Notes under the pieces: model-generated | What the model saw: the letters and a program-made list of their open reading frames with translations, nothing else | Databases searched by the model: none | What the model was told of the DNA's origin: nothing | Shown here: positions 290 to 10,445 of the stretch, piece by piece | Layout: each line of letters opens with the position of its first letter | Numbering within the stretch: the stretch's first letter is position 1 | Made by a program: the position numbers and the translations under genes | Assembly: GCA_026398575.1 (NCBI GenBank) | Contig: JAPLSP010000589.1 | Location: 1 to 10,445, forward strand | Direction: 5' to 3' | Length of the DNA: 10,445 bases | From: Candidatus Sumerlaeota bacterium | GTDB taxonomy: Bacteria; Sumerlaeota; Sumerlaeia; JADFCT01

Positions 290-1150
290 TCAGCTAAAAA
301 GAATTCGCGACAGCTTAGTGCGGTATTCCTCGGCCATGGAATCCTCGCGCCCCAGCATGTCGAAAATCACAAGCATCGCCTTGCGCGCAGCGCCTTCGTC
401 ATGCGCGCGGTTGCGCCGGACGCATTCGAGGAATTGCTCGAGCGCCTGCTGAAAATCGCCTTCCGCCGCCATACAACACGCCAGACTATAGCGCGCGCCA
501 ATGTCCGATTCATTGGCCGCCAGCGTCATCGCGCACGCCGAACGCCCTCCGGCCTTCTGGCAGGCGAGCATAAACTCAATCCGGGCCAGGATGCTGCGGG
601 CCTTGCCGTGGCTGGGACTGTCCGCGCCGACGGATTCCGCCAGTTTCTGGGCTTCGTCGGCTTCTCCCTTGCCGATCAAAATCCCGGCCAGCAAAACTGC
701 GGCCTGGCCGTGCTCGGGCGTGGCCTCCAACACCTTGCGCAGGATCGGTTCGGCCTTTTTGGCTTTGCCTTCGGCGATCAGTTTCTCGGCCCGCGTCGTA
801 TCGTCGTCTTCCTGCTGCGGGATCGCCTCGGCGATGATTTTCCGCACGACCGTTTCCGGTTGCGCGCCAATAAATTCGGAGACAAGTTCCCCGTTTCGCA
901 GAATCTTCACGGCCGGAATGCTCTGGATTCCAAAAGCCGCGGCGATCTCCTGATTTTCATCCACGTTGACTTTGACCAGCGTGGCGACGTCGCCAAACGG
1001 GGCCGTCGCTCTCTCGATGATGGGCCCCAGCGTTTTGCAGGGCGCGCACCACGTAGCCCAGAAATCTATGACATAGGTATGATTAGCCGGCCCGCCGAGC
1101 ACCCGGCTCTGAAAATCTTCGGGGCCATGAATATCCACAATTGCAAGCAT
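290..1150 (-). CDS. cnoX: CnoX/YbbN-type thioredoxin with C-terminal TPR-like region
   Basis: The protein has 286 residues, almost the length of E. coli CnoX (YbbN). Residues 1-110 are a thioredoxin fold with the active site WCAPC (Cys35 and Cys38) and the cis-proline loop SIPAV (Pro79). Residues about 118-286 are helical TPR-like repeats, including GKAKKAEPILRKVLEATPEH and EGDFQQALEQFLECVRRN. CnoX proteins are cytoplasmic holdases that protect substrates from oxidation and aggregation and pass them to GroEL or DnaK. E. coli CnoX lost the first active-site cysteine; this one keeps both, so it probably also has disulfide-reductase activity (inference). The start is chosen at 1150 because GAGGAA (1155-1160) sits 4-6 bases upstream and the fold begins at once (MLAIVDI); the frame stays open to 1273, but that extension looks non-coding. 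It is transcribed away from the hydrolase-like gene. Confidence 0.92.
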   Translation of the reverse strand: MLAIVDIHGPEDFQSRVLGGPANHTYVIDFWATWCAPCKTLGPIIERATAPFGDVATLVKVNVDENQEIAAAFGIQSIPAVKILRNGELVSEFIGAQPETVVRKIIAEAIPQQEDDDTTRAEKLIAEGKAKKAEPILRKVLEATPEHGQAAVLLAGILIGKGEADEAQKLAESVGADSPSHGKARSILARIEFMLACQKAGGRSACAMTLAANESDIGARYSLACCMAAEGDFQQALEQFLECVRRNRAHDEGAARKAMLVIFDMLGREDSMAEEYRTKLSRILFS

Positions 1151-1374
1151 TGAATTCCTCACTGGAAAAAGCGCGTGTCGGCGCCTTCGGGATTCTGCGC
1201 CATTTTGCGCCGCCTGAAGAAAAGGCGGCGCGCGCGCAATGAGCCCGAAGATTAACTGCAAAGGCGCCTCCACGCCAAGCGCCTTTTCAGGATTAAAACG
1301 ATGGACAAATTCGGCGGGGCAATTCCATGATCGCGGACAGGAATTCTTCCATCAAACCGATTATGGAGGGCGCC
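1151..1374. promoter_or_regulatory. Divergent intergenic region with two 8-bp hairpins
   Basis: This region lies between the divergent cnoX and hydrolase-like genes and should hold both promoters, though no convincing -35/-10 pair could be picked. Two perfect inverted repeats are visible. GCGCCGCC (1207-1214) pairs with GGCGGCGC (1224-1231) across a 9-base loop. AAAGGCGC (1260-1267) pairs with GCGCCTTT (1279-1286) across an 11-base loop, with one more T after it, so it looks like a weak terminator in the plus direction. Their role is unknown; both could be leader structures of the divergent transcripts. Confidence 0.35.
1155..1160 (-). promoter_or_regulatory. Ribosome binding site of cnoX
   Basis: On the minus strand, GAGGAA lies immediately ahead of the ATG at 1150, and the GAGG part is separated from it by six bases. 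It favours this start over the in-frame ATG at 1273. Confidence 0.6.
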
Positions 1375-1440
1375 GTGAAAATCTGTCTTTTTGCATTCGC
1401 GTTTTCATTTCCCTTCGCCGCCGTCGCTTATGAGCGGGGG
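1375..1440 (+). pseudogene. Detached signal-peptide start of the hydrolase-like gene
   Basis: A GTG at 1375, preceded by GGAGGG (1365-1370), starts MKICLFAFAFSFPFAAVA, a typical Sec signal peptide with a short positive start, a hydrophobic core and an AVA cleavage site. This frame then runs only into unrelated sequence and stops at 1507-1509. The conserved body of the protein continues in the next frame from about 1440. The strong ribosome binding site and signal peptide show that this was the original translation start. The switch of frame lies near a run of five G (1436-1440). Confidence 0.7.
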
Positions 1441-2410
1441 ATGCCTGACCGAGGAACAGTTGACGGCGCTGGAAAAAGCCGGAATGCCGGTGATCTGCGA
1501 TCAGAATGAATTCGCGCTGAAAAACAAGGAACGGAAAATCATCGTCGGTTGGATGCACGGAGACGAGCCGGATAACGCGCAGGAATTGCCAAACAAAAAA
1601 GGCTATGGCCCGCCGATCCTGCCGGAAAAAATCGTCGCGGACTCTCAGCGCATCCGGCAGGCCGATCCGTCACGGCCGGTGATGCTGAATCTCGGCCAGG
1701 GCGTCGCATGGGATGGTTACTATGGGCGCGGCGTGCGGACAAACAAACCTGAAGACTACCCCAAATATATCCAGGGATGCGATATCGCCTCCTTTGATAT
1801 CTATCCCGTCACGCATGATCGCAAGGAAGTGAAAGGCAAACTGGAATTCGTCGGCAAGGGCGTGCAGCGCTTGCGGCAATGGTCCGAAAACAAGAAGCCG
1901 GTTTGGGCGTGCATCGAATGCACGCGCATCGGCAATCCCAACGTCAAGCCAACGCCCGAGCAGGTCAAGGCGATCGTATGGATGGCGCTGATTCACGGCG
2001 CCAAGGGACTGATCTACTTCAGCCATGAATTCAAACCCAAGTTCATTGAAGCCGGATTGTTAGCCGACCCGGCCATGGCGCAGGCAGCCGGCCAGGTCAA
2101 CAAGCGGATTCAGGAACTGGCGCCGGTGTTGAACAGCGCGACCATCGAAGGCGCCGTCGAGGCTTCGAGCGCGAACAAGAACGCGCCGATTGATATCATG
2201 GTCAAGCGTTCCGGCGACGCGCTGCACGTCTTTGCCATCAACATGAGCGACGCCCCAACATCCGGCGTATTCACGCTCATGAAGGCAGGCGCGGAAGAAC
2301 TGGCGGCGATTGAAGGCGAGAACCCGAGACGACGCATAGCGATTCAGCAGAGCAGGTGGCAGGATGTTTTCCAAGGATATGAAACGCATCATTACAGAAT
2401 TGGGAATTAG
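1391..2410 (+). CDS. TIM-barrel glycoside-hydrolase-like protein, N-terminus broken
   Basis: The open frame has 339 codons from a TTG at 1391; an ATG at 1430 is the other internal start. From about LTEEQLTALEKAGMPVICDQ onward it looks like an intact (beta/alpha) barrel protein. It has GWMHGDEPDNAQ (Glu59), a strand ASFDIYPVTHD and KPVWACIECT (Glu176). The two glutamates sit at ends of predicted strands, as acid/base and nucleophile do in clan GH-A enzymes; this assignment is inference and the substrate is unknown. The C-terminal part (about residue 245 on) resembles a small beta domain. As I recall the related planctomycete-type proteins, they have a signal peptide followed by about 30-40 residues (first barrel strand, helix and second strand) before the LTEEQL helix. 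Those residues are absent here and the signal peptide is out of frame, so this is probably a pseudogene, unless the assembly is wrong. Confidence 0.75.
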   Translation: MHSRFHFPSPPSLMSGGCLTEEQLTALEKAGMPVICDQNEFALKNKERKIIVGWMHGDEPDNAQELPNKKGYGPPILPEKIVADSQRIRQADPSRPVMLNLGQGVAWDGYYGRGVRTNKPEDYPKYIQGCDIASFDIYPVTHDRKEVKGKLEFVGKGVQRLRQWSENKKPVWACIECTRIGNPNVKPTPEQVKAIVWMALIHGAKGLIYFSHEFKPKFIEAGLLADPAMAQAAGQVNKRIQELAPVLNSATIEGAVEASSANKNAPIDIMVKRSGDALHVFAINMSDAPTSGVFTLMKAGAEELAAIEGENPRRRIAIQQSRWQDVFQGYETHHYRIGN

Positions 2411-2450
2411 GGGCTTTTGTGCCTTTATGGATGTATCGCTAAAGCCTGTC

Positions 2451-2544
2451 CGAGAAGCCACGCTGAAGCGTGCTCGAAGGGATTGGCTGCTGAACAACAC
2501 CCCTGCTGAAGCAGGGTGCAAAGAAGAGCCTGCTGAAGCAGGCT
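2451..2544. repeat. Three tandem TGAA-loop hairpins
   Basis: Three short perfect stem-loops share the loop TGAA and the core GCTGAAGC. They are CACGC-TGAA-GCGTG (2459-2472, with an outer CGAG/CTCG clamp at 2451-2454 and 2473-2476), CCCTGC-TGAA-GCAGGG (2501-2516) and AGCCTGC-TGAA-GCAGGCT (2527-2544). No T-run follows any of them, so they are not classical intrinsic terminators, though they could stop or protect the upstream transcript. Loops are identical while stems differ with matching changes on both sides, as in a repetitive extragenic palindrome family. Confidence 0.6.
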
Positions 2545-2574
2545 AATCCCGGAAGGCGGCGGCAGACAGATACT

Positions 2575-3552
2575 ATGACGAAGTGGACGGATATTGCAGT
2601 TATTGTGGTAACATGGAACTCGGCGAAATGGATTGGCGGGTGTTTAGAGGCGTTGGCCAAAACCCGTTATGAAGGCAACTTGACGGTCATCGTCGTTGAT
2701 AATGCTTCGTCCGACGACAGTCACCAGATCACATGGAATTTCACCGCAGAATATGTGAGCTCGAATGCCGGCCGCAGCGGCGCCAGCTCAGGAAAGCGCA
2801 TAGAGTGGATAATGATCTGCGAAAATGAAAACCTGGGATTCGGAGGGGCAAATAACCAAGGCTGGCAGGACGAGGACGCGGAGGCGCCCATCATCGTCTT
2901 TCTCAATCCCGACACCGAGGTCACCCCCGATTGGCTGACGCCAATCGCAGAGCGCTTCGAGTCATCTCCGGATACGGCGATCATCGGATGCAAGCTGCTC
3001 TTCCCATCGTCTTCCGAATCCAGCGGCGCGCAAGGGCCATCCAACCCATCCATCATCCAACACGCCGGCGGCATTATATATGACAACGGCATGACCGATC
3101 ACATCGGGACCGGTCAGGAAGATCGCGGCCAATATGACCGCCCGCTGGAAATGGACTATGTCACGGGCGCAGCAATGGCCGTGCGGCGGACGCTTCTGGA
3201 AGAAGCCGGCGGCTTCGACGATCTGTTTTATCCGGCGTATTTCGAGGAGACGGATTTATGCGCGCAAGCCCATGCGCGCGGCCTGAAGGTGGTTTATGAG
3301 CCGCGCTCCGTCGTCATCCATCATGAATCCACGTCGCTGACGCGCGGCAGCCGGCGCTTTATCCGGTTCTATGCGCGGGGACGGGCCAAGTTTTTAATGA
3401 AGCATTTTTCCGCCGCCGACTGGCTTTGCCGGTTTTTGCCTTTCGAGCTTCGCTGGTTCCGCTGGCGCCAATCGCGCGAAGAATACGGGTGCATCCTGCT
3501 ATCGTATGCCGGCGCCTTGATTGGAAAATGGAAGGGAAAGAAGAAGGCATAG
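2575..3552 (+). CDS. Family 2 glycosyltransferase (rhamnosyltransferase-like)
   Basis: The protein has 325 residues with a GT-A fold of family GT2. The nucleotide-sugar site opens with AVIVVTWNS (residues 8-16) and VDNAS (41-45), then NLGFGGANN (86-94). The metal-binding DXD-type motif is FLNPDTEV (109-116). The acceptor side has YVTGAAMAVRR (195-205) and GGFDDLFYPAYFEETDL (212-228), with the conserved acidic pair Glu224/Glu225, followed by HHES (249-252). There is no signal peptide or membrane segment, so it probably acts on the cytoplasmic face of the inner membrane, adding a sugar such as rhamnose to a lipid-linked polysaccharide; donor and acceptor cannot be read from sequence. The stretch between the DNAS and NLGF motifs (46-85) is longer than usual. 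The ATG at 2575 has only a distant GGAAGG upstream. It stands alone, not in a polysaccharide cluster. Confidence 0.93.
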   Translation: MTKWTDIAVIVVTWNSAKWIGGCLEALAKTRYEGNLTVIVVDNASSDDSHQITWNFTAEYVSSNAGRSGASSGKRIEWIMICENENLGFGGANNQGWQDEDAEAPIIVFLNPDTEVTPDWLTPIAERFESSPDTAIIGCKLLFPSSSESSGAQGPSNPSIIQHAGGIIYDNGMTDHIGTGQEDRGQYDRPLEMDYVTGAAMAVRRTLLEEAGGFDDLFYPAYFEETDLCAQAHARGLKVVYEPRSVVIHHESTSLTRGSRRFIRFYARGRAKFLMKHFSAADWLCRFLPFELRWFRWRQSREEYGCILLSYAGALIGKWKGKKKA

Positions 3553-3631
3553 TACTCATACTCGTAAATACGACAACACAAAATCATCGCGAATACACAT
3601 GCCGGAGGAAAAGATTCATGCGGATAGGAGC

Positions 3632-3748
3632 AGCGCCAGCATTTGGAGTGCGGTTGCTTGCTGCCGCTTTAGCTTACATGGTCTATAAGATTGGGGTAGC
3701 GAAAGCGGCAGCGCGGCAGCAAGCAACCGCACTCCAAAAGCTGGCGCC
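3632..3748. repeat. Large imperfect palindromic repeat with duplicated inner arm
   Basis: The outer arms 3632-3667 and 3713-3748 are inverted copies matching at 34 of 36 bases; each contains TTTGGAGTGCGGTTGCTTGC or its complement. Inside, 3660-3674 (GCTGCCGCTTTAGCT) and 3698-3712 form a second inverted pair, matching at 14 of 15, that shares bases with the left outer arm. The right side therefore carries two tandem copies of the GCGGCAGC end, and two alternative stems are possible. The centre is a short AT-richer spacer. It is probably a non-coding mobile or REP-like element in the gap between the glycosyltransferase and glnE. No target duplication is evident. Elsewhere in 3553-3822 only a stray GGAGG-ATG (3604-3620) is visible. 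Confidence 0.75.
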
Positions 3749-3822
3749 ACTTCTGAGCGCATTACTTTCGTCCCTTGGGCAAAAATATGTGTCCGTAATT
3801 CTGAATCAGAACACTTAGCGAC

Positions 3823-6800
3823 ATGCCGCCAATGATTGAACAACTCAAGCGCCTGCATCCCGGCTTGGATGATGCGTTGCTGGAACGCCATCTGACGCAT
3901 CTTCCCGAGCGCTATTTCGAATGCTTCGATCTGGAAAGCGTTGCCCGCCATCTGGAAGGACTGGGCAGTCTATCGCCGCAGCAACCCGTTGAAGTCCTGA
4001 TCCAGTTTGGAAGCGATGGACGGGTGGATTGCACGTTTCTGGCTTTCGACTATGCGGGGGAATTCTCGCTCTTTGCCGGCATTCTGGCCGCGTCAGGCTT
4101 CGAGGTCGAATCCGGCGACATCTTCACGTACGAGCGTGAGGCGCCGGAAAGCGCCCCTCCCGCTCAGCCGCCGTCTTCCCTTCCGCTCACCAATCATCAG
4201 CGCCACCTGCTCCGCCAGCGCTGGCTGGCCTTTCAGCGCCTGCCGGACCGCCTTCGCCGCCGCCTCGTGATTGACCGCTTCCAGGGAACCATCGAGCCCG
4301 TGGACGCGCCCCCGGTATGGGCGCAGGAGTTGCGCGAACGCACGCTCGAGATCATTCTCAAAATGGAGAACAAGGAAATCGAAAAGGCCCGCAACCGCGT
4401 CAACGAAATGGTCACGCAGCGCCTTGAAAGCCTCCAGGCGCAAACCCCCGCCGTGCTTTATCCCATTCATCTCGAAATAGACAACGACGGTCCCTATACG
4501 CGCCTGAAAGTGGTATCGGAGGATACGCCCGCCTTCCTCTATTCGCTGAGCAACGCGCTGTCGCTGCGCGATATCTCCATCGAGCGCGTGACGATCCGCA
4601 CCCACGAACGGCGCATCCAGGACGAGATCGAATTCCTGAGTTTGTCCGGACAGCGGATCACGGACGCGGAAACGCTGCGCCAGATCAAGCTCTCGGCGCT
4701 GTTCACCAAGCAGTTCACCTATTTCCTGCCCAGCGCGCCCGATCCCTACGCCGCTCTGACGCGATTCAACAATCTGCTTCAGGACGTGACGCGCCTGCCG
4801 GAAGAGGGCCGCTGGCTCGAACGCTTTTCGCAAACCCGCAACCTTGACGGCCTGGCGCGCGTCCTGGGCGCCAGCGATTTCATCTGGGAGGACTTCATCC
4901 GCCTCCAGCACGAAGTGCTCCTGCCTATTCTGGAACCGGGAACGCAATCCGGAAAGTTTTTCGACCGCTCGACGCTGGCGGCGCGGCTCGAGGCGGCCTT
5001 GAAAGAAGCCGCTTCCCCTGAAGAGTGGCGGCAAAAGCTCAATGAATTTAAGGACCATGAAATATTTCTGATTGATCTGGATCACATCCTGAAAGCCGGT
5101 TCCTTTGATCCGCGTTCGCTGGCTGAAAATCTGAACGCCCTGGCGGAGTTGATCGTGCGCAAGGCATACAGCTTCGCTTTCGATCAGCTGACGCGGCATT
5201 ATGGCGTCCCGCGCACCGTCGGCGGCCTCGAGGCGCATTGCGCCGTGCTGGGGCTGGGCAAATTCGGAGGCGTGGCGATGGGATATGCCTCGGACTTCGA
5301 ACTGCTGTTCGTCTATAGCGACAATGGGGAGACCGACGGCCCCAACCGGATCAAGAACGCCGAATTTTTCGAGCGTCTGGTGCAGAGCTTCCGAGACACC
5401 ATCAAAGCCAAGCGCGAAGGTATCTTCGAGCTGGATCTTCAGTTGCGCCCTTATGGCAACAAAGGCTCCCTGGCCTCGAGTCTTGAAGCGTTTTGCCGCT
5501 ACTTCGGCCCGGGAGGCGAAGCTTATGCATACGAACGGCTGGCCTTGGTGCGCCTGCGAGCCGTGGCGGGCGATCCGATGCTCGGGGCGCAGATCGAGCG
5601 CTTGCGAGACGAGTTTGTTTACGAGGCCCAAACCATCGAGGTTCGTCAGATACACGATCTGCGCAAAAAGCAACTCAAGGAAAAAACCGGCGAGCGGCCC
5701 AACGCCAAGTTCTCACCGGGCGCGATGGTTGACTTGGAATACGCCGTTCAGATTCTCCAGGTGACCTATGCGCAGATAGCGCCTGCGTTGAAAACGCCGC
5801 GCATACATGAGGCGCTGGAAGCGCTCCTCAACGCCGGATTGCTGAGTCCGCTCGAAACCGGGCGCTTGTCGAACGCGTATTATTTTTTGCGCCGCCTGGT
5901 CAATGGACTGCGCATGTTGCGAGGCAACGCCCGCGACCTTTTTCTCCCTCCCGCCGATTCCGAAGAGTTTGTCCATCTGGCCCATCGCATGGGATACGAA
6001 CGGCGCGGCGAGCTGGACCGCTCGCAGCAGTTGTACTTGGATTTCGAGACCCATACCGCGGCCATCCGCGCGTTCGTGGAGCGGCATTTTGGGAGGGAAT
6101 CGCTCCCGGGGCCGCTCATCGGCAGCGTGGCGGACTTGGTGCTTTCCGATCAGGCGCCGCCCGAGCTCATCGAAAAAATCTTCAAGGCCGTGGGCATTCA
6201 GGACGGCCGGCAAGGCATGACGAATCTCCAACGCCTGGCGGGCAGCGGCGAACGGCGCGAACGCTTCGCGATGCTGGCGGTGCTGGCGTTCGACATGCTC
6301 CGTTCGAAAGCCGACCCGGCCATGGCCCTGAACAACTGGGAGCGGTTCTGCGATTCGCTCGAAGACCCGAAGACGCATTTCGAGACGCTGCTGTCGCAGC
6401 CCAGGCGGCTGGACATCCTTCTGAGCATCTTCTCCAACAGTCAGTTTCTTTCCGATGTGCTGGCCATCAATCCCGGAGTTTTCGAATGGGTCACGTCGCC
6501 GGCGAATTTGCATCGCACGCTCGAACGCGCCGAGGTGGAAAGGGAATTGCGCGAGCGATCCCGCAGTTTGCCGGAACACGAGGCCTGGCTCGATGCGATC
6601 CGCATTCACCGGCGCCGCGAAATCCTCAGGATCGGAACCCGCGATATCTGCCTCGGGGTTCCCATTCGCATCATTACGGGCGAGATTTCGGCGCTGGCCG
6701 ACGGCATCGTCCAGGCGACGCTCGAACGCTTCTGGCAGACCTGCGCCCAACCGGAATTATCCGAACGCTTTTGCATCCTGGCCTTCGGCAAGCTGGGCGG

Positions 6801-7644
6801 GTGTGAATTGAACTACAGCTCGGATATTGATCTGATCGGCGTTTATGACGGTCCGGCTGACCCACTGTTCGCCAAGGCCATGGAGGAGGTTCGCGAAGAT
6901 TTGGCAAAGCACACCAACGAGGGCTACGCCTATCGGGTTGATTTGCGCCTGCGGCCCTACGGACGCTCCGGACAGCTGGTTCCGTCCGTGAGCACGATGG
7001 TGAATTACTATCGCGACAAGGCTTCGCACTGGGAAGTTCAAGCGCTGCTCAAAGCGCGTCCCATCGCGGGAAATCTACGAATCGGCCGCGAATTGCTCGA
7101 ACGCCTGCGGTTCGCATTCAAGCGGCAGCGCTCGCGCCAGGAAGTGGTGCGTTCGATCGAGACCTTGCGTTCGCAGGCCATCGCCCAAACCGCGCAGCGC
7201 CAGACGCTGGACGCCAACGGGCGGCTCGGCGCCAGCCACCAGCTCGATGTCAAGAACGGACGGGGTGGCATTCGCGATATTGAATTCCTCGTCCAAGGCT
7301 TGCAGATGATCCATGCCGTCGAATATGAAGAGGCGCTTGCAGCCAACACCATCGAGGCGCTCGGACTGCTGGCGAAACACGGAATCCTTCCCGTGCAAGT
7401 TTCGCGCGCCCTGCACGAATACTACGTCTTTATGCGACGCGTCGAGCATTTCCTCCAAATCCTGGACGACCGCCAGACGCATTCGCTGCCGCTGGACAAG
7501 GTGGAACTGTCCGCCCTTTCCAAGCGCGTCCTGGGCGGCAAAGTCACCGAAGAAATTTTCCGCGTCTGCATCGAAGAATGCCTGAAGCGGGTTTGGGGAA
7601 TATATCAGGAATATTTGCTGGGCAAAACCGAAAATTCCGACTGA
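3823..7644 (+). CDS. glnE: Glutamine synthetase adenylyltransferase/deadenylase with N-terminal tandem ACT domains
   Basis: GlnE controls glutamine synthetase by attaching AMP to, or removing it from, a tyrosine of GlnA. This protein has 1273 residues against about 946 in E. coli. Residues about 56-103 and 224-275 read as two ACT domains like those at the C-terminus of GlnD (DYAGEFSLFAGILAASGFEV; DTPAFLYSLSNALSLRDISI), joined by a charged helical linker. The first nucleotidyltransferase domain has GLGKFGG (477-483), SDFE (490-493) and LDLQLRPYG (Asp538). The second has FGKLGG (988-993), SSDID (999-1003), VDLRLRPYG (Asp1040) and a GIRDIEFLVQ helix. By analogy with E. coli, the first domain removes AMP and the second adds it. 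The first domain has Glu493 where the second metal-binding Asp is expected. The start at 3823 is bounded by a stop at 3802-3804; no clear ribosome binding site is seen. It stands alone, with glnA and glnB not in view. Confidence 0.94.
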   Translation: MPPMIEQLKRLHPGLDDALLERHLTHLPERYFECFDLESVARHLEGLGSLSPQQPVEVLIQFGSDGRVDCTFLAFDYAGEFSLFAGILAASGFEVESGDIFTYEREAPESAPPAQPPSSLPLTNHQRHLLRQRWLAFQRLPDRLRRRLVIDRFQGTIEPVDAPPVWAQELRERTLEIILKMENKEIEKARNRVNEMVTQRLESLQAQTPAVLYPIHLEIDNDGPYTRLKVVSEDTPAFLYSLSNALSLRDISIERVTIRTHERRIQDEIEFLSLSGQRITDAETLRQIKLSALFTKQFTYFLPSAPDPYAALTRFNNLLQDVTRLPEEGRWLERFSQTRNLDGLARVLGASDFIWEDFIRLQHEVLLPILEPGTQSGKFFDRSTLAARLEAALKEAASPEEWRQKLNEFKDHEIFLIDLDHILKAGSFDPRSLAENLNALAELIVRKAYSFAFDQLTRHYGVPRTVGGLEAHCAVLGLGKFGGVAMGYASDFELLFVYSDNGETDGPNRIKNAEFFERLVQSFRDTIKAKREGIFELDLQLRPYGNKGSLASSLEAFCRYFGPGGEAYAYERLALVRLRAVAGDPMLGAQIERLRDEFVYEAQTIEVRQIHDLRKKQLKEKTGERPNAKFSPGAMVDLEYAVQILQVTYAQIAPALKTPRIHEALEALLNAGLLSPLETGRLSNAYYFLRRLVNGLRMLRGNARDLFLPPADSEEFVHLAHRMGYERRGELDRSQQLYLDFETHTAAIRAFVERHFGRESLPGPLIGSVADLVLSDQAPPELIEKIFKAVGIQDGRQGMTNLQRLAGSGERRERFAMLAVLAFDMLRSKADPAMALNNWERFCDSLEDPKTHFETLLSQPRRLDILLSIFSNSQFLSDVLAINPGVFEWVTSPANLHRTLERAEVERELRERSRSLPEHEAWLDAIRIHRRREILRIGTRDICLGVPIRIITGEISALADGIVQATLERFWQTCAQPELSERFCILAFGKLGGCELNYSSDIDLIGVYDGPADPLFAKAMEEVREDLAKHTNEGYAYRVDLRLRPYGRSGQLVPSVSTMVNYYRDKASHWEVQALLKARPIAGNLRIGRELLERLRFAFKRQRSRQEVVRSIETLRSQAIAQTAQRQTLDANGRLGASHQLDVKNGRGGIRDIEFLVQGLQMIHAVEYEEALAANTIEALGLLAKHGILPVQVSRALHEYYVFMRRVEHFLQILDDRQTHSLPLDKVELSALSKRVLGGKVTEEIFRVCIEECLKRVWGIYQEYLLGKTENSD

Positions 7645-7744: not shown

Positions 7745-8524
7745 TCATCCCCCGCAGATTTGCTTTCGAAGCTGATTGGCTTCAGCTGCGATCGCGCGCA
7801 GGGCTTCCATTTCCTGAGAGCCCCAGGCGATGCCCAGCGCCGTCTTCGCCGGAAGCACGCAGGACGCGGAGGGAGCAGGGGCCGCCGGTGAAGCCGCAGC
7901 CACATCATAGGCGTCGCCCAGTCCGGAGCTGCGCGTCGAGCGCAGATATCCCATAATCAGGTCCCGGATTTCCTGCGGGTTGTCAATGCCGCGAAACACT
8001 CCCTGATGCAGCATCAACGCGAATTGGTTGGGATCCTTCTGGACAAGGTTTCCGCCGCCACCGGCGGTTTCCACCACCAGATTGTAGATTCCGAAGAGCC
8101 GTTGAAGCGGCCCTTGCTGGATGTTGAAATTCTGAATATTGTCGAACGTCAGCGTGATCTCGCGGATCATCCATACGCCTTCGCGTATGCGCAGACTGCG
8201 GTCGGTGATGATATAGTATCGCATCTCATAATCCAACCGCACGACGACATAGAAGAAGGCCGCCTCCAGGGCCACTGCAATCGCGATCAGCAAACCAATC
8301 AGCAAACCCAAAACATGCAACGCCGCGACGAAGACGACAATCGCCAGCAGAAGCGCCATCGTCAGGAAGCCATTGAAAATATAAAATCCGAGAAGGCGGT
8401 AGTGCAGATAGGCGCGCGCGGCGCGAAACACGCGGACCAGATCATGCGATCCGGCGGGAGGCGCCGGCGGCGCGGCGGGACACTTGAGCAACGAAAGGAC
8501 AAGGCTTTTTAGAAGCTCATACAT
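7745..8524 (-). CDS. Membrane-anchored bacterial PH (bPH2, YdbS-like) domain protein
   Basis: The protein has 259 residues. Two adjacent membrane helices lie at about 46-70 and 71-95, followed by a bPH2 domain (formerly DUF304) at about 97-194. The signatures of that domain are MRYYIITDRSLRIREGVW (101-118), LTFDNIQNFNIQQGPLQRLF (125-144) and YNLVVETAG. An Ala/Pro/Ser-rich linker (about 208-224) leads to a short amphipathic C-terminal helix, QEMEALRAIAAEANQLRKQI. YdbS/YdbT-type proteins are inner-membrane proteins with a cytoplasmic PH fold; their molecular role is poorly defined. It is the second gene of a two-gene operon: the upstream bPH2 gene ends 44 bases before this start. AGGGAA lies about eight bases ahead of the ATG. 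The product acts at the membrane (inference). Confidence 0.9.
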   Translation of the reverse strand: MYELLKSLVLSLLKCPAAPPAPPAGSHDLVRVFRAARAYLHYRLLGFYIFNGFLTMALLLAIVVFVAALHVLGLLIGLLIAIAVALEAAFFYVVVRLDYEMRYYIITDRSLRIREGVWMIREITLTFDNIQNFNIQQGPLQRLFGIYNLVVETAGGGGNLVQKDPNQFALMLHQGVFRGIDNPQEIRDLIMGYLRSTRSSGLGDAYDVAAASPAAPAPSASCVLPAKTALGIAWGSQEMEALRAIAAEANQLRKQICGG

Positions 8525-8568
8525 GGCGCTATTCCCTTTCCCGAGCGATGGGTGTCAGATGAACGTGC

Positions 8569-9159
8569 TCACTGTTTCTGGTCCTGCAAGGCGCGGCGGA
8601 CGCCGGCAAGGTCCGCGTGAATCTGGCGCAGCAGATCAAGCGCTTCGGGACTGGAAGTGGATTGCAGCGAAGCGGCGGGGGCGCTGACGGCCGATGGACT
8701 TGCAGCCGATGGACTTGCGGCAGCAATAGGCTCTGCGAGGCCACGCGTCGCACGATGTCCGCGCATCCGTCCATAAAGGAAATCGCGCAATGCCTCATAA
8801 TCGCGGATTCCTTGCAGCGACATCTCGGCGGCGGCGCTCCCGGAAGCGGTCTGGATGGAGAGCGACGCCAGCCCAAGCCATCGCTCAATCAGGCCGCGCG
8901 TCAGATGAATGTCCTGAATGCGCGCATACGTCAGGTTGATCTCGCGATGGAAGAGGATGCCCCAGCTCATGCTGATGCCTTCGGAGTCGAACCGATAGCG
9001 CAGGGTGTGATACTTGAAAAAAAGCGGGATGAAGACAATCGGGCAAAATATCAAACCGGCAAGCGACCAGAGAAAATACTGGAACAGCAATTGGGGGTCT
9101 GGCCGCGTCAGCGCGTAAATGCGCCTTTCGTCTATGGTTTGCTGCGGAGTGGCGGACAT
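8569..9159 (-). CDS. Second bPH2 (YdbT/YdbS-like) domain protein
   Basis: The protein has 196 residues. A hydrophobic segment at about 25-49 is long enough for one membrane pass or a hairpin. The bPH2 domain at about 52-131 has LRYRFDSEGISMSWGILFHR (53-72), INLTYARIQDIHLTRGLIER (74-93) and LGLASLSIQTASG. An Ala/Ser/Pro linker (about 142-170), partly made by a 15-bp tandem duplication in the DNA, is followed by a C-terminal amphipathic helix, PEALDLLRQIHADLAGVRRA. The start at 9159 is chosen because GAGGAGGG (9170-9177) precedes it and homology begins just after; the frame is open to 9510, but that stretch is antisense to hrpB. It is the first gene of the bPH2 operon. The matching layout of the two proteins suggests that they work as a pair. 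Confidence 0.88.
   Translation of the reverse strand: MSATPQQTIDERRIYALTRPDPQLLFQYFLWSLAGLIFCPIVFIPLFFKYHTLRYRFDSEGISMSWGILFHREINLTYARIQDIHLTRGLIERWLGLASLSIQTASGSAAAEMSLQGIRDYEALRDFLYGRMRGHRATRGLAEPIAAASPSAASPSAVSAPAASLQSTSSPEALDLLRQIHADLAGVRRALQDQKQ
8690..8718. repeat. 15-bp tandem duplication in the bPH2 linker
   Basis: GCCGATGGACTTGC occurs at 8690-8703 and again at 8705-8718, separated by one A. In the minus-strand gene it encodes the repeated peptide AASPS. The period is a multiple of three, so the frame is kept and only the disordered linker is lengthened. Confidence 0.8.
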
Positions 9160-9322
9160 GGGGCGCGAACCCTCCTCTGCATTGAACGGAATAGCTGCAA
9201 TAATATTCAATGCCGGCCGGAGCGCAATCGAAAAGCGAATGGATCGCTTTTTCGCGCTTGAGCTGCACGCCATATCGCTCATGATTCCGCAGACAGAATA
9301 TTCACACATTGACGCAGATCTC
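9160..9322. promoter_or_regulatory. Divergent control region between the bPH2 operon and hrpB
   Basis: Two perfect 8-bp inverted repeats lie between these divergent genes. GCATTGAA (9179-9186) pairs with TTCAATGC (9206-9213) over a 19-base AT-rich spacer, the geometry of a dimeric regulator site. AAAAGCGA (9231-9238) pairs with TCGCTTTT (9244-9251) over a 5-base loop, forming a tight hairpin. GAGGAGGG at 9170-9177 (minus strand) is the ribosome binding site of the bPH2 gene. No promoter hexamers are convincing, and operator function is inference. Confidence 0.4.
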
Positions 9323-10445
9323 ATGGCTCTTTGCGATTCGCTTCCCATTGATTCAATCATCCCCGCGCTGGCGGCGGCGCTCGAAAATGGAAAAGGCGCC
9401 GTTGTCGTGGCGCCGCCGGGCGCGGGCAAGACGACGCGCGTTCCGCCGGCGCTTGCAATGACATCGTTTCTTGCCAGCGGACGGCGCAAGGGCGATGCGC
9501 GCGCTGTCATGCTTCTGCAGCCCCGGCGCGTGGCCGCGCGCGCTGCGGCGGCGCGGATCGCAAGCGAACACGGATGGAAGATGGGACGCGAAGTCGGCTA
9601 TCAGATACGGTTTGAAAATCGCACCTCTCCTGACACGCTTCTGCGAGTGGTAACGGAAGGAATTCTCACGCGCCGGATTCAAAGCGATCCGTTTCTTGAG
9701 GGCATCAGTTGCGTCATACTGGACGAATTTCATGAGCGCAGCATCCACACGGATTTGGCGCTGGCGATGCTGCGCGAGATTCAGGCGACGGCGCGCGAGG
9801 ATTTGCGGATCGTCGTCATGTCGGCCACGATGGACCCGAAACCCGTAGCCGAATTTCTGGGCGGCGTCCCAATCTTTCAGAGCGAAGGCCGCCTATACCC
9901 GGTCGAGATCGAGCATCTCGAAGGCGCGATCTCGCCAACAGCCCCTATCTGGGAACAAACTGCAGCGCAAGTGAAGCGCGTGCTGAGTTCGGCGGCGCCT
10001 TGTCCGTGTTCGTCCGTGCCCGTCCGTGCCCGTCCGCGCCTCCCGCTGTCCCCCGGCCACGTAATGGTCTTCCTGCCGGGCATCGGGGAAATCCGGCGAA
10101 CACAAGCCTTGCTGCGCGACGTGGACGCGGATATTCACATCCTGCACAGTTCGGTTTCGAATGAAGAGCAGGACCGCGCTTTGCAGCCTTCCGAGCGGCG
10201 CAAAGTCATTCTCGCCACCAATATCGCGGAAACATCACTGACGATTGACGGCGTGCGAACCGTGATTGACACGGGACTGGCGCGAGTCCTTATCAGCGAC
10301 GCGCGGCTCGGCATTGACCGCCTCGAACTGCGCCGCATCAGCCGCGCCTCAGCCGCGCAACGCGCCGGTCGCGCGGGACGCACGGCGCCGGGACGCTGCA
10401 TCCGGCTCTGGAGCGCGCGCGAAAACGCCCGCATGGCCGAGAGCG
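9323..10445 (+). CDS. hrpB: ATP-dependent RNA helicase HrpB, N-terminal part (runs off the window)
   Basis: The window contains 374 codons of a DEAH-family helicase whose HrpB members are usually about 800 residues. Motifs in order are Walker A APPGAGKTT (30-38), LQPRRVAA (65-72), VTEGIL (110-115), DEFHER (134-139, the HrpB variant of DEAH), SAT (167-169), LHSS (274-277), ATNIAETSLTI (298-308) and QRAGRAGR (346-353). HrpB is a cytoplasmic NTP-dependent RNA helicase of unclear physiological role. The start at 9323 gives MALCDSLPIDSIIPAL, matching the usual LPID opening of the family. In-frame ATGs at 9239 and 9281 are possible, but the first sits in a hairpin loop. Residues about 226-244 are an unusual Pro/Arg/Cys-rich insertion, encoded largely by a 10-bp tandem repeat, between the two RecA-like domains. 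Confidence 0.95.
   Translation, partial: MALCDSLPIDSIIPALAAALENGKGAVVVAPPGAGKTTRVPPALAMTSFLASGRRKGDARAVMLLQPRRVAARAAAARIASEHGWKMGREVGYQIRFENRTSPDTLLRVVTEGILTRRIQSDPFLEGISCVILDEFHERSIHTDLALAMLREIQATAREDLRIVVMSATMDPKPVAEFLGGVPIFQSEGRLYPVEIEHLEGAISPTAPIWEQTAAQVKRVLSSAAPCPCSSVPVRARPRLPLSPGHVMVFLPGIGEIRRTQALLRDVDADIHILHSSVSNEEQDRALQPSERRKVILATNIAETSLTIDGVRTVIDTGLARVLISDARLGIDRLELRRISRASAAQRAGRAGRTAPGRCIRLWSARENARMAES
10001..10040. repeat. Four tandem 10-bp units (CGTCCGTGCC) inside hrpB
   Basis: The units are TGTCCGTGTT, CGTCCGTGCC, CGTCCGTGCC and CGTCCGCGCC. Because 10 is not a multiple of three, successive units are read in different frames, giving CPCSSVPVRARPR. The array lies in the hinge between helicase domains 1 and 2 and leaves the frame open. 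Its GTCCG core resembles the intergenic 9-bp array at 7667-7711. Confidence 0.85.

What the first reader, a model, noticed from the sequence alone, without database searches (positions are those of the whole stretch)
3823..4740. GlnE with its own GlnD-like tandem ACT sensor at the N-terminus
In the sequence, the first catalytic motif comes at residue 490 instead of about 170 as in E. coli GlnE, and the roughly 320 extra residues contain two stretches that read like GlnD ACT domains. Known: GlnD carries two C-terminal ACT domains that bind glutamine, and normal GlnE gets its nitrogen signal through PII proteins. Inference: this GlnE may sense glutamine directly and control glutamine synthetase without, or in parallel to, GlnD and PII. 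The arrangement ACT-ACT-NT-NT swaps the sensor of one nitrogen enzyme onto the other.
Basis: partly seen in the sequence, partly recalled or inferred. Interest (0 to 1): 0.72.

Follow-up and report, generated by a model that had tools for sequence, protein, structure and literature searches.

The report
GlnE carrying GlnD's tandem ACT sensor
This bacterial enzyme, which switches glutamine synthetase on and off, carries at its front end the nutrient-sensing part of a different enzyme, seems to have its two catalytic halves in the opposite order to the textbook version, and was found mostly in genomes where that other enzyme is missing, so it probably reads the cell's nitrogen state directly.

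Summary
The ORF at 3823-7644 (1273 aa) is a GlnE-type protein. Its first ~290 residues match the whole post-HD C-terminus of GlnD (linker, ACT1, ACT2; profile-profile probability 99.7, E 4e-27). All 120 listed homologues (the window included) share this architecture.

(1) By tree and diagnostic residues the catalytic halves are swapped: ACT-ACT-AT-AR against canonical AR-AT; profile scores do not back this. (2) The ACT-ACT-AT module also occurs as AR-ACT-ACT-AT and alone (~730 aa). (3) GlnD is found in 1 of 24 genomes with an ACT-GlnE, against 43 of 47 with canonical GlnE. The PII tyrosine that GlnD modifies is mostly missing there, while a glutamine synthetase with the target tyrosine is kept in 19 of 19 genomes.

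Most likely this is a one-protein, effector-sensing switch of glutamine synthetase that replaces the GlnD/PII-UMP relay. Glutamine binding is not shown, and the hallmark ACT glycine is lost in ACT2. Ten library searches found no description. No structure could be predicted.

The parts
3823..7644 (+). ACT-ACT-AT-AR GlnE, 1273 aa
   Evidence: all 120 listed homologues (window included) have ACT-ACT-NT-NT
3856..3993 (+). GlnD-type helical linker before ACT1 (GlnD post-HD region)
   Evidence: aligned by TIGR01693 and by hhalign
3994..4140 (+). ACT1, strands 1-3 with helix 1 (DYAGEF loop at 4048-4065)
   Evidence: strand/helix limits inferred from the GlnD alignment
4141..4446 (+). variable insert in the ACT1 hairpin, probable ACT1 last strand (RRRLVIDRFQG, 4255-4287) and ACT1-ACT2 linker
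   Evidence: alignment of 120 homologues and hhalign gaps; strand assignment inferred
4447..4701 (+). ACT2 (DTPAFLY loop at 4522-4542)
   Evidence: Pfam ACT 227-289, below cut-off, NCBIfam GlnD models
5065..6204 (+). first nucleotidyltransferase half, AT-type by tree (G.GK.GG...SDFE motif 5251-5301)
   Evidence: PF03710; placement, not backed by profile scores; D and E of the motif invariant in 120 of 120
6595..7632 (+). second nucleotidyltransferase half, AR-type (FGKLGG...SDID motif 6784-6831; GGIRDIEF at 7264-7287)
   Evidence: PF03710 and PF08335; placement with canonical AR domains

Best explanation
It is a GlnE-type glutamine synthetase (GS) adenylylating/deadenylylating enzyme in which the effector-sensing C-terminus of GlnD is built on to the adenylyltransferase (AT) half, with the adenylyl-removing (AR) half moved to the C-terminus. 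Shown here: homology of the N-terminus to the GlnD tandem ACT module, the co-occurrence pattern, and the conserved GS tyrosine in relatives' genomes. Supported but not settled: the domain order. Inferred: when glutamine is high it binds the ACT pair, which turns the adjoining AT half on and lets it adenylylate the conserved tyrosine of GS (GS off); when glutamine falls the ACT pair lets go and the AR half removes AMP (GS on). One protein would then do what GlnD, PII and PII-UMP do together in E. coli. PII, where it is kept, would be an optional extra input without uridylylation.
For: N-terminus = GlnD post-HD module. ACT-linked catalytic domains of all three architectures form one clade (100/100) on the non-AR side; canonical AR, the second domain of the window type and the first domain of the AR-ACT-ACT-AT type lie together on the other side (100/99). 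Of residues defined on canonical GlnE, 9 AR-diagnostic ones are kept at 88% in the second domain and 2% in the first. GlnD: 1 of 20 ACT-ACT-AT-AR genomes and 0 of 4 AR-ACT-ACT-AT genomes, against 43 of 47 canonical (Fisher p 1.5e-13, not corrected for kinship); the contrast repeats inside Spirochaetota (0 of 10 against 6 of 10) and Verrucomicrobiota (1 of 8 against 9 of 9). G014 and G057 lie almost wholly on one contig, so absence there is reliable. PII Tyr51: in 25 of 26 PII proteins read from 19 (of the 43) genomes with canonical GlnE and GlnD, each of the 19 having at least one; against 2 of 19 proteins (2 of 12 genomes) with ACT-GlnE and no GlnD. The one genome with both, G294, has Tyr51 in 1 of 4 PII, the one encoded next to its ACT-GlnE. 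GS with the Tyr motif (DK[DN]IYD) in 19 of 19 ACT-ACT-AT-AR genomes with a GS hit. glnA next to ACT-glnE in 6 of those 19; in the 11 canonical genomes compared the two are on different contigs.
Against: No ligand shown. The loop glycine typical of ligand-binding ACT domains is Ala in ACT2 (114 of 134; Gly in 2) and variable in ACT1 (Gly in 40 of 134, the window among them), against 10 (ACT2) and 13 (ACT1) of 15 in GlnD. PII is clear in 13 of 24 ACT genomes, at times next to the gene (G079, G105, G294). Domain order: scored with canonical AR and AT profiles, the first domain prefers AR in 18 of 18 window-type proteins (by 6-38 bits), whereas 17 of 18 canonical AT domains prefer AT in the leave-one-out control (only E. 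coli's prefers AR); the ACT-linked domains of AR-ACT-ACT-AT proteins prefer AT in 5 of 5. A first tree set did not reject the usual order (AU p 0.27); fair tests on the second set give p 0.016 and 0.014. Whole-length NCBIfam alignments partly run colinear with canonical GlnE. Four canonical genomes also lack GlnD, and 2 of those 4 keep a Tyr51 PII. Second GS copies in G007, G079 and G251 lack the Tyr motif. Most genomes surveyed appear to be MAGs. The window has no genome held.
Confidence: 0.57

Rival explanations
1. The ACT pair is kept as a dimerisation or protein-docking element, or senses another small molecule, and nitrogen signalling still comes from PII (unmodified, sensing 2-oxoglutarate and ATP) or from the glutamine effect that canonical GlnE already has.
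For: ACT2 loop glycine replaced by Ala in 114 of 134; PII clear in 13 of 24 genomes and at times encoded next to ACT-glnE (G079, G105, G294); canonical GlnE adenylylation is itself stimulated by glutamine (PMC6490700, passages).
Against: 9 of 24 ACT-GlnE genomes show no PII match and 2 more only a weak one. ACT2 is about as conserved as the catalytic halves (mean majority fraction 0.72 against 0.63-0.76), with near-invariant Asp, Thr and Asp positions (231, 257 and 264 in P0001 numbering) that the 15 GlnD also hold.
Confidence: 0.25
2. The domain order is the ordinary AR-AT one and the swap is a tree artefact; the protein is simply GlnE with an added N-terminal ACT pair.
For: AU p 0.27 in the first data set; the AR profile outscores the AT profile for the first domain in 18 of 18 (by 6-38 bits), while 17 of 18 canonical AT domains behave as AT in the same control; colinear NCBIfam alignments; the region before the second domain prefers the canonical pre-AR region in only 20 of 32.
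Against: Deep split 100/99 in two later tree sets; AR-diagnostic residues 2% in the first domain, 88% in the second; both domains of the window type prefer the AR profile, the second with higher scores, and E. coli's true AT domain does so too, so that score alone cannot order them; in AR-ACT-ACT-AT proteins the ACT pair again stands directly before a domain of the same clade.
Confidence: 0.15
3. The ACT-linked catalytic domain is neither AT nor AR but an older, third class of nucleotidyltransferase (possibly still modifying PII), later joined to AR.
For: The tree is unrooted; canonical AT is not one clade beside it; its motif in the window type is SD.E instead of SD.D in 120 of 120; it exists alone in ~730 aa proteins.
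Against: AT-diagnostic residues 60%, AR-diagnostic 2%; PII Tyr51 missing in 10 of 12 such genomes with PII read; glnA is seen next door in 6 genomes, PII in 3.
Confidence: 0.08

Closest known systems
GlnE, bifunctional glutamine synthetase adenylyltransferase / adenylyl-removing enzyme (E. coli type, AR-R-AT)
   Same: Two PF03710 nucleotidyltransferase halves with PF08335 helical parts; GS with the adenylylation tyrosine in relatives' genomes; at times encoded beside glnA.
   Different: Carries the GlnD tandem ACT at the N-terminus; AT-type half first and AR-type half second by the trees; first catalytic motif SD.E; mostly found where no GlnD was found.
GlnD, [protein-PII] uridylyltransferase / uridylyl-removing enzyme
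   Same: The N-terminal ~290 residues are the GlnD region after the HD domain: linker, ACT1, ACT2.
   Different: No HD (uridylyl-removing) domain found; catalytic halves are of GlnE type; sensor N-terminal instead of C-terminal; extra insert in ACT1; ACT2 loop Gly to Ala.
ACR11/ACR12 plant ACT-repeat proteins (PMC3173338, passages read)
   Same: GlnD-like tandem ACT domains used outside GlnD; ACR11 is linked to glutamine synthetase by co-expression.
   Different: Described there as ACT repeats in the chloroplast, without a GlnE part.
AR-ACT-ACT-AT and solo ACT-ACT-AT proteins found here
   Same: Same ACT-ACT-AT module, one clade with the window's first catalytic domain.
   Different: AR half N-terminal, or absent.

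Membership tests
GlnE (bifunctional GS adenylyltransferase/deadenylylase) | Two PF03710 catalytic domains, with PF08335-type helical parts | tested here: met
   PF03710 304 bits in two stretches, PF08335 134 bits in two stretches
GlnE (bifunctional GS adenylyltransferase/deadenylylase) | Order AR (N-terminal) then AT (C-terminal) | tested here: not met
   Order AT-type then AR-type by trees and diagnostic residues; profile scores and some other measures say otherwise or nothing
GlnE (bifunctional GS adenylyltransferase/deadenylylase) | Reaches an NCBIfam equivalog cut-off | tested here: not met
   Window: 430 against 625, 427 against 487, 391 against 724 bits. Two of three relatives of the same architecture do pass NF008292 (P0006, P0054; not P0059), so this is weak
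GlnE (bifunctional GS adenylyltransferase/deadenylylase) | GS with the adenylylation tyrosine in the same genome | tested here: met
   19 of 19 related genomes with a GS hit, G001 without a hit; the window's own genome is not held
GlnE (bifunctional GS adenylyltransferase/deadenylylase) | Adenylylates and deadenylylates GS | not testable with these tools
   needs enzyme assay
GlnD | Post-HD linker with tandem ACT | tested here: met
GlnD | HD (uridylyl-removing) domain | tested here: not met
   no HD family hit in the protein up to E=1; best stretches of the GlnD models lie in the post-HD part or in the catalytic halves
ACT domain (ligand-binding, PF01842) | Sequence profile above curated cut-off | tested here: not met
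   20.7 against 27 bits for the window N-terminus; profile-profile match 99.7% to GlnD; several relatives carry a precomputed PF01842 hit
ACT domain (ligand-binding, PF01842) | Near-invariant glycine in the first strand-helix loop (after PMC3173338, passages) | tested here: inconclusive
   window ACT1 has Gly, ACT2 has Ala
[quoted passage not shown]
   structure prediction switched off

The most novel reading that the evidence does not exclude
A GlnD-derived sensor fused to the AT half of GlnE arose once and spread over many phyla in three arrangements (ACT-ACT-AT-AR, AR-ACT-ACT-AT, ACT-ACT-AT alone). With it, bacteria control glutamine synthetase by direct effector sensing in a single protein and have dropped GlnD and PII uridylylation, collapsing the textbook two-cycle cascade into one cycle.
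Probability: 0.4. Interest if true: 0.85.

Novelty: new variant of a known kind. Interest (0 to 1): 0.72.

Why it matters
The GlnD-PII-GlnE-GS bicyclic cascade is the textbook case of nested covalent regulation. A widespread GlnE that carries the GlnD sensor, in genomes where GlnD was not found and whose PII mostly lacks the uridylylation tyrosine, would be a natural single-cycle version. It would let one test directly what the second cycle adds, and whether the GlnD ACT pair alone is a portable glutamine sensor. Where sources name these proteins they mostly call them glutamate-ammonia-ligase adenylyltransferase or hypothetical, so the usual nitrogen-control scheme may have been assumed wrongly for these phyla.

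Tried and rejected

Split-gene architecture: in G032 the AR part and the ACT-ACT-AT part sit on different contigs, but the end of the first overlaps in sequence with the start of the second, so I read it as an AR-ACT-ACT-AT gene cut by assembly and not a split gene. G019 is cut by a contig end.

AR/AT assignment by profile score: it speaks against the swap for the first domain (18 of 18 prefer AR; 17 of 18 canonical AT domains prefer AT in the control). I do not take it as decisive because E. coli's own AT domain also prefers AR and both domains of the window type do. Region before the second domain as a marker of permutation: 20 of 32 canonical proteins match best before AR, 12 of 32 before AT (E. 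coli among these): suggestive only.

GlnD HMM was built with three wrong-frame ORFs among 18 rows; one search repeated the comparison with the 15 true GlnD only.

First tree set: deep split 93/96 with all rows, SH-aLRT 96 without the long rows; AU did not reject rival orders (p 0.27, 0.28). The sets hold a choice of the loci fetched, not all of them. The one search set left out L057, L059 and L065. In it both domains of the actinobacterial L081 grouped together. Rows dropped: the GlnD outgroup and both domains of L058, L079, L081 and L084. One search used 80 rows and left out, of the proteins scanned, the fast-evolving Spirochaetota rows (L049-L051, L054-L056, L064), L057, L079, L081-L083, L238, L242, L246, L003, L063, P0021, L087, L255 and L259. 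further dropped L084, L252, L061, L254, L085, P0083, P0041 and the two 'single' rows, and added 7 AR-ACT-ACT-AT and 10 solo proteins out of those listed. The AU test with p 4e-68 also breaks a well-supported sister pair, so the fairer p 0.016 is the one to use.

Library searches for ACT-GlnE: nothing seen that describes it; only listings and starts of abstracts were seen, except passages of PMC2700814, PMC3173338, PMC6490700 and PMC3710099. The library holds open-licence papers only.

Full report
WHAT IS THERE. The ORF at 3823-7644 (+) encodes 1273 aa. Pfam finds GlnE (PF03710) twice, the GlnD/GlnE helical part (PF08335) twice and a sub-threshold ACT at 227-289. Against NCBIfam the N-terminal fragment matches four GlnD models, best E 2.4e-9, one of them over residues 19-288; the only other listed match up to E=1 is unrelated (E 0.22). 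A profile of the 120 listed homologues (101 kept by the program) aligned with 15 GlnD C-termini gives probability 99.7 and E 4e-27 over residues 12-282, while the GlnD catalytic part gives 0.4. So the whole GlnD region after the HD domain is present, including the linker before ACT1. ACT1 carries an insert of variable length in its hairpin (position inferred).

HOW WIDESPREAD. The protein search returned 875 homologues, 120 listed, the window's own protein among them; all 120 have ACT-ACT-NT-NT. Names given by sources include Desulfobacterales, Thermodesulfobacteriota, Syntrophobacteria, Lentisphaerae and candidate division FCPU426; the eight loci come from Sumerlaeota, Spirochaetota, Lentisphaerae and two unnamed bacteria. 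A second search, from an AR-ACT-ACT-AT protein (491 found, 120 listed, 107 of them new), brought two further layouts. Of the 227 proteins read, 134 are ACT-ACT-NT-NT, 62 NT-ACT-ACT-NT and 31 ACT-ACT-NT (most 707-767 aa; sources name Nitrospirota, Chloroflexi, Anaerolineae and Tectomicrobia; at least three of the 31 are cut: P0138, P0171, P0201).

ORDER OF THE CATALYTIC HALVES. With canonical GlnE from Pseudomonadota, Sumerlaeota, Verrucomicrobiota and Spirochaetota, the domains split into an AR side (canonical first domains, second domains of the window type, first domains of NT-ACT-ACT-NT) and the rest (canonical second domains and every ACT-linked domain), support 100/99. ACT-linked domains of all three layouts form one clade, 100/100. 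Nine residues that mark canonical AR are kept at 88% in the window type's second domain and 2% in its first; eight AT marks at 29% and 60%. AU tests on the second set disfavour the usual order (p 0.016) and a separate duplication (p 0.014); on the first set they did not (p 0.27 and 0.28). Against the swap: scored with canonical AR and AT profiles, the first domain prefers AR in 18 of 18 window-type proteins, although 17 of 18 canonical AT domains prefer AT in the control; E. coli's alone prefers AR. The region before the second domain is mixed (20 of 32), and NCBIfam whole-length alignments are partly colinear. The tree is unrooted, so the ACT-linked domain could also be an older third class. 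I read the order as ACT-ACT-AT-AR with moderate confidence. The first motif is SD.E, both acidic residues invariant in 120 of 120; the second is SD.D, also 120 of 120.

GENOME SURVEY. PF03710 was sought in 120 Spirochaetota (20 with a match), 55 genomes of the phylum of G004 (6), 145 of the phylum of G006, read as Verrucomicrobiota with Lentisphaerae (34), and 40 of the phylum of G001, Sumerlaeota (31). GlnD (TIGR01693) was then sought in those with a GlnE I could class plus the eight starting genomes. ACT-ACT-AT-AR: 20 genomes, GlnD in one (G294, 475 bits). AR-ACT-ACT-AT: 4 genomes, none. Canonical: 47 genomes (26 read in full, 21 judged by frame length and lack of an ACT match), GlnD in 43; 34 of these 43 reach the curated cut-off, 9 were counted on a long or split match below it (G018, G031, G074, G097, G102, G158, G332, G340, G349). 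The four without are G060, G067, G092 and G117. Genomes with a PF03710 match not placed in these counts: G019 and G122 (cut by contig ends), G098, and 20 with only short weak matches in ~900-1170 aa frames (17, 3), which I took for GlnD or other relatives and did not test. G156 (N-terminus cut), G006 and G008 (C-terminus cut) and G322 (three frames) were counted as ACT-ACT-AT-AR by their domains. Fisher p 1.5e-13 ignores kinship, but the contrast repeats within two phyla. G014 and G057 lie nearly whole on one contig, so the absence there is real as far as the search reaches.

PII AND GS. PII is clear in 47 of 47 canonical genomes and in 13 of 24 ACT genomes; 2 more are weak (G008, G251) and 9 have none. 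In PII proteins read, the position of Tyr51 (the GlnD target, named in PMC3612183's abstract, search listing) holds Tyr in 25 of 26 from 19 genomes with canonical GlnE and GlnD, in 2 of 19 from 12 ACT genomes without GlnD (one of the two a doubtful alignment), in 1 of 4 of G294, which has GlnD, and in 2 of 6 from the 4 canonical genomes without GlnD. Not every PII of each genome was read. GS with the tyrosine motif is present in 19 of 19 ACT-ACT-AT-AR genomes with a GS hit; second GS copies in G007, G079 and G251 lack it, and G001 has no hit. glnA lies next to ACT-glnE in G005, G007, G079, G233, G294 and G310; in G294 a PII gene lies on the other side.

MECHANISM. In E. coli-type cells GlnD reads glutamine, probably through its ACT pair (PMC3173338, passages), and GlnE is told by PII and PII-UMP, with direct stimulation by glutamine (PMC6490700, passages). 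The simplest working model is glutamine-bound ACT pair = AT on, empty ACT pair = AR on. Against an unchanged pocket stands the loss of the ACT2 loop glycine (Ala in 114 of 134; GlnD Gly in 10 of 15). For a working sensor stand the loop aspartates (133 of 134 in each ACT) and conservation of ACT2 close to that of the catalytic halves. Ligand identity, the direction of the effect and the catalytic assignment are inferred.

LIMITS. No fold could be predicted; the PDB sequence search with E. coli GlnD found no GlnD structure, so the glutamine site of GlnD itself could not be mapped. No genome is held for the window. Most surveyed genomes appear to be MAGs (many contigs). Desulfobacterota, Nitrospirota and Chloroflexota genomes were not surveyed.

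Noticed in passing
window 3607-3773: Long imperfect palindrome (61-nt arms, 80% complementary, plus inner arms) ending 50 nt before the glnE start; folds far better than shuffles (z -9.2); no Rfam match; an 18-nt core was found neither in the 300 loci held nor in viral contigs. Possible mobile palindromic element or terminator.
   Followed up: partly
G226 (L258): A genome nearly all on one contig (1.95 Mb) has an AR-ACT-ACT-AT GlnE and a PII but no PF00120 glutamine synthetase match at E 1e-20: GlnE without its usual target, or GS in the missing part.
   Followed up: no
G060, G067, G092, G117 (L049-L051, L064): Spirochaetota with short canonical GlnE (frames of 921-937 aa) whose AT half is very divergent (42-53 bits against the seed profile) and without GlnD; two of them keep a Tyr51 PII.
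   Followed up: no
G294 (L253, L300): Only genome seen with both an ACT-GlnE and a GlnD; its ACT1 is barely recognisable (5 bits), it keeps a Tyr51 PII, and PII, ACT-glnE and glnA are neighbours.
   Followed up: partly
L058 (G043): 1602-aa AR-ACT-ACT-AT protein with long extra stretches, in a Spirochaetota genome without a PII match and without a GlnD.
   Followed up: no
window 290-1273 (-), 1391-3552 (+), 7745-9270 (-), 9119-10444 (+): Neighbours: thioredoxin-TPR protein, GH42-like protein, family 2 glycosyltransferase, two bacterial PH-domain (bPH_2) proteins, DEAD/helicase-C protein; none of these points to nitrogen metabolism.
   Followed up: partly
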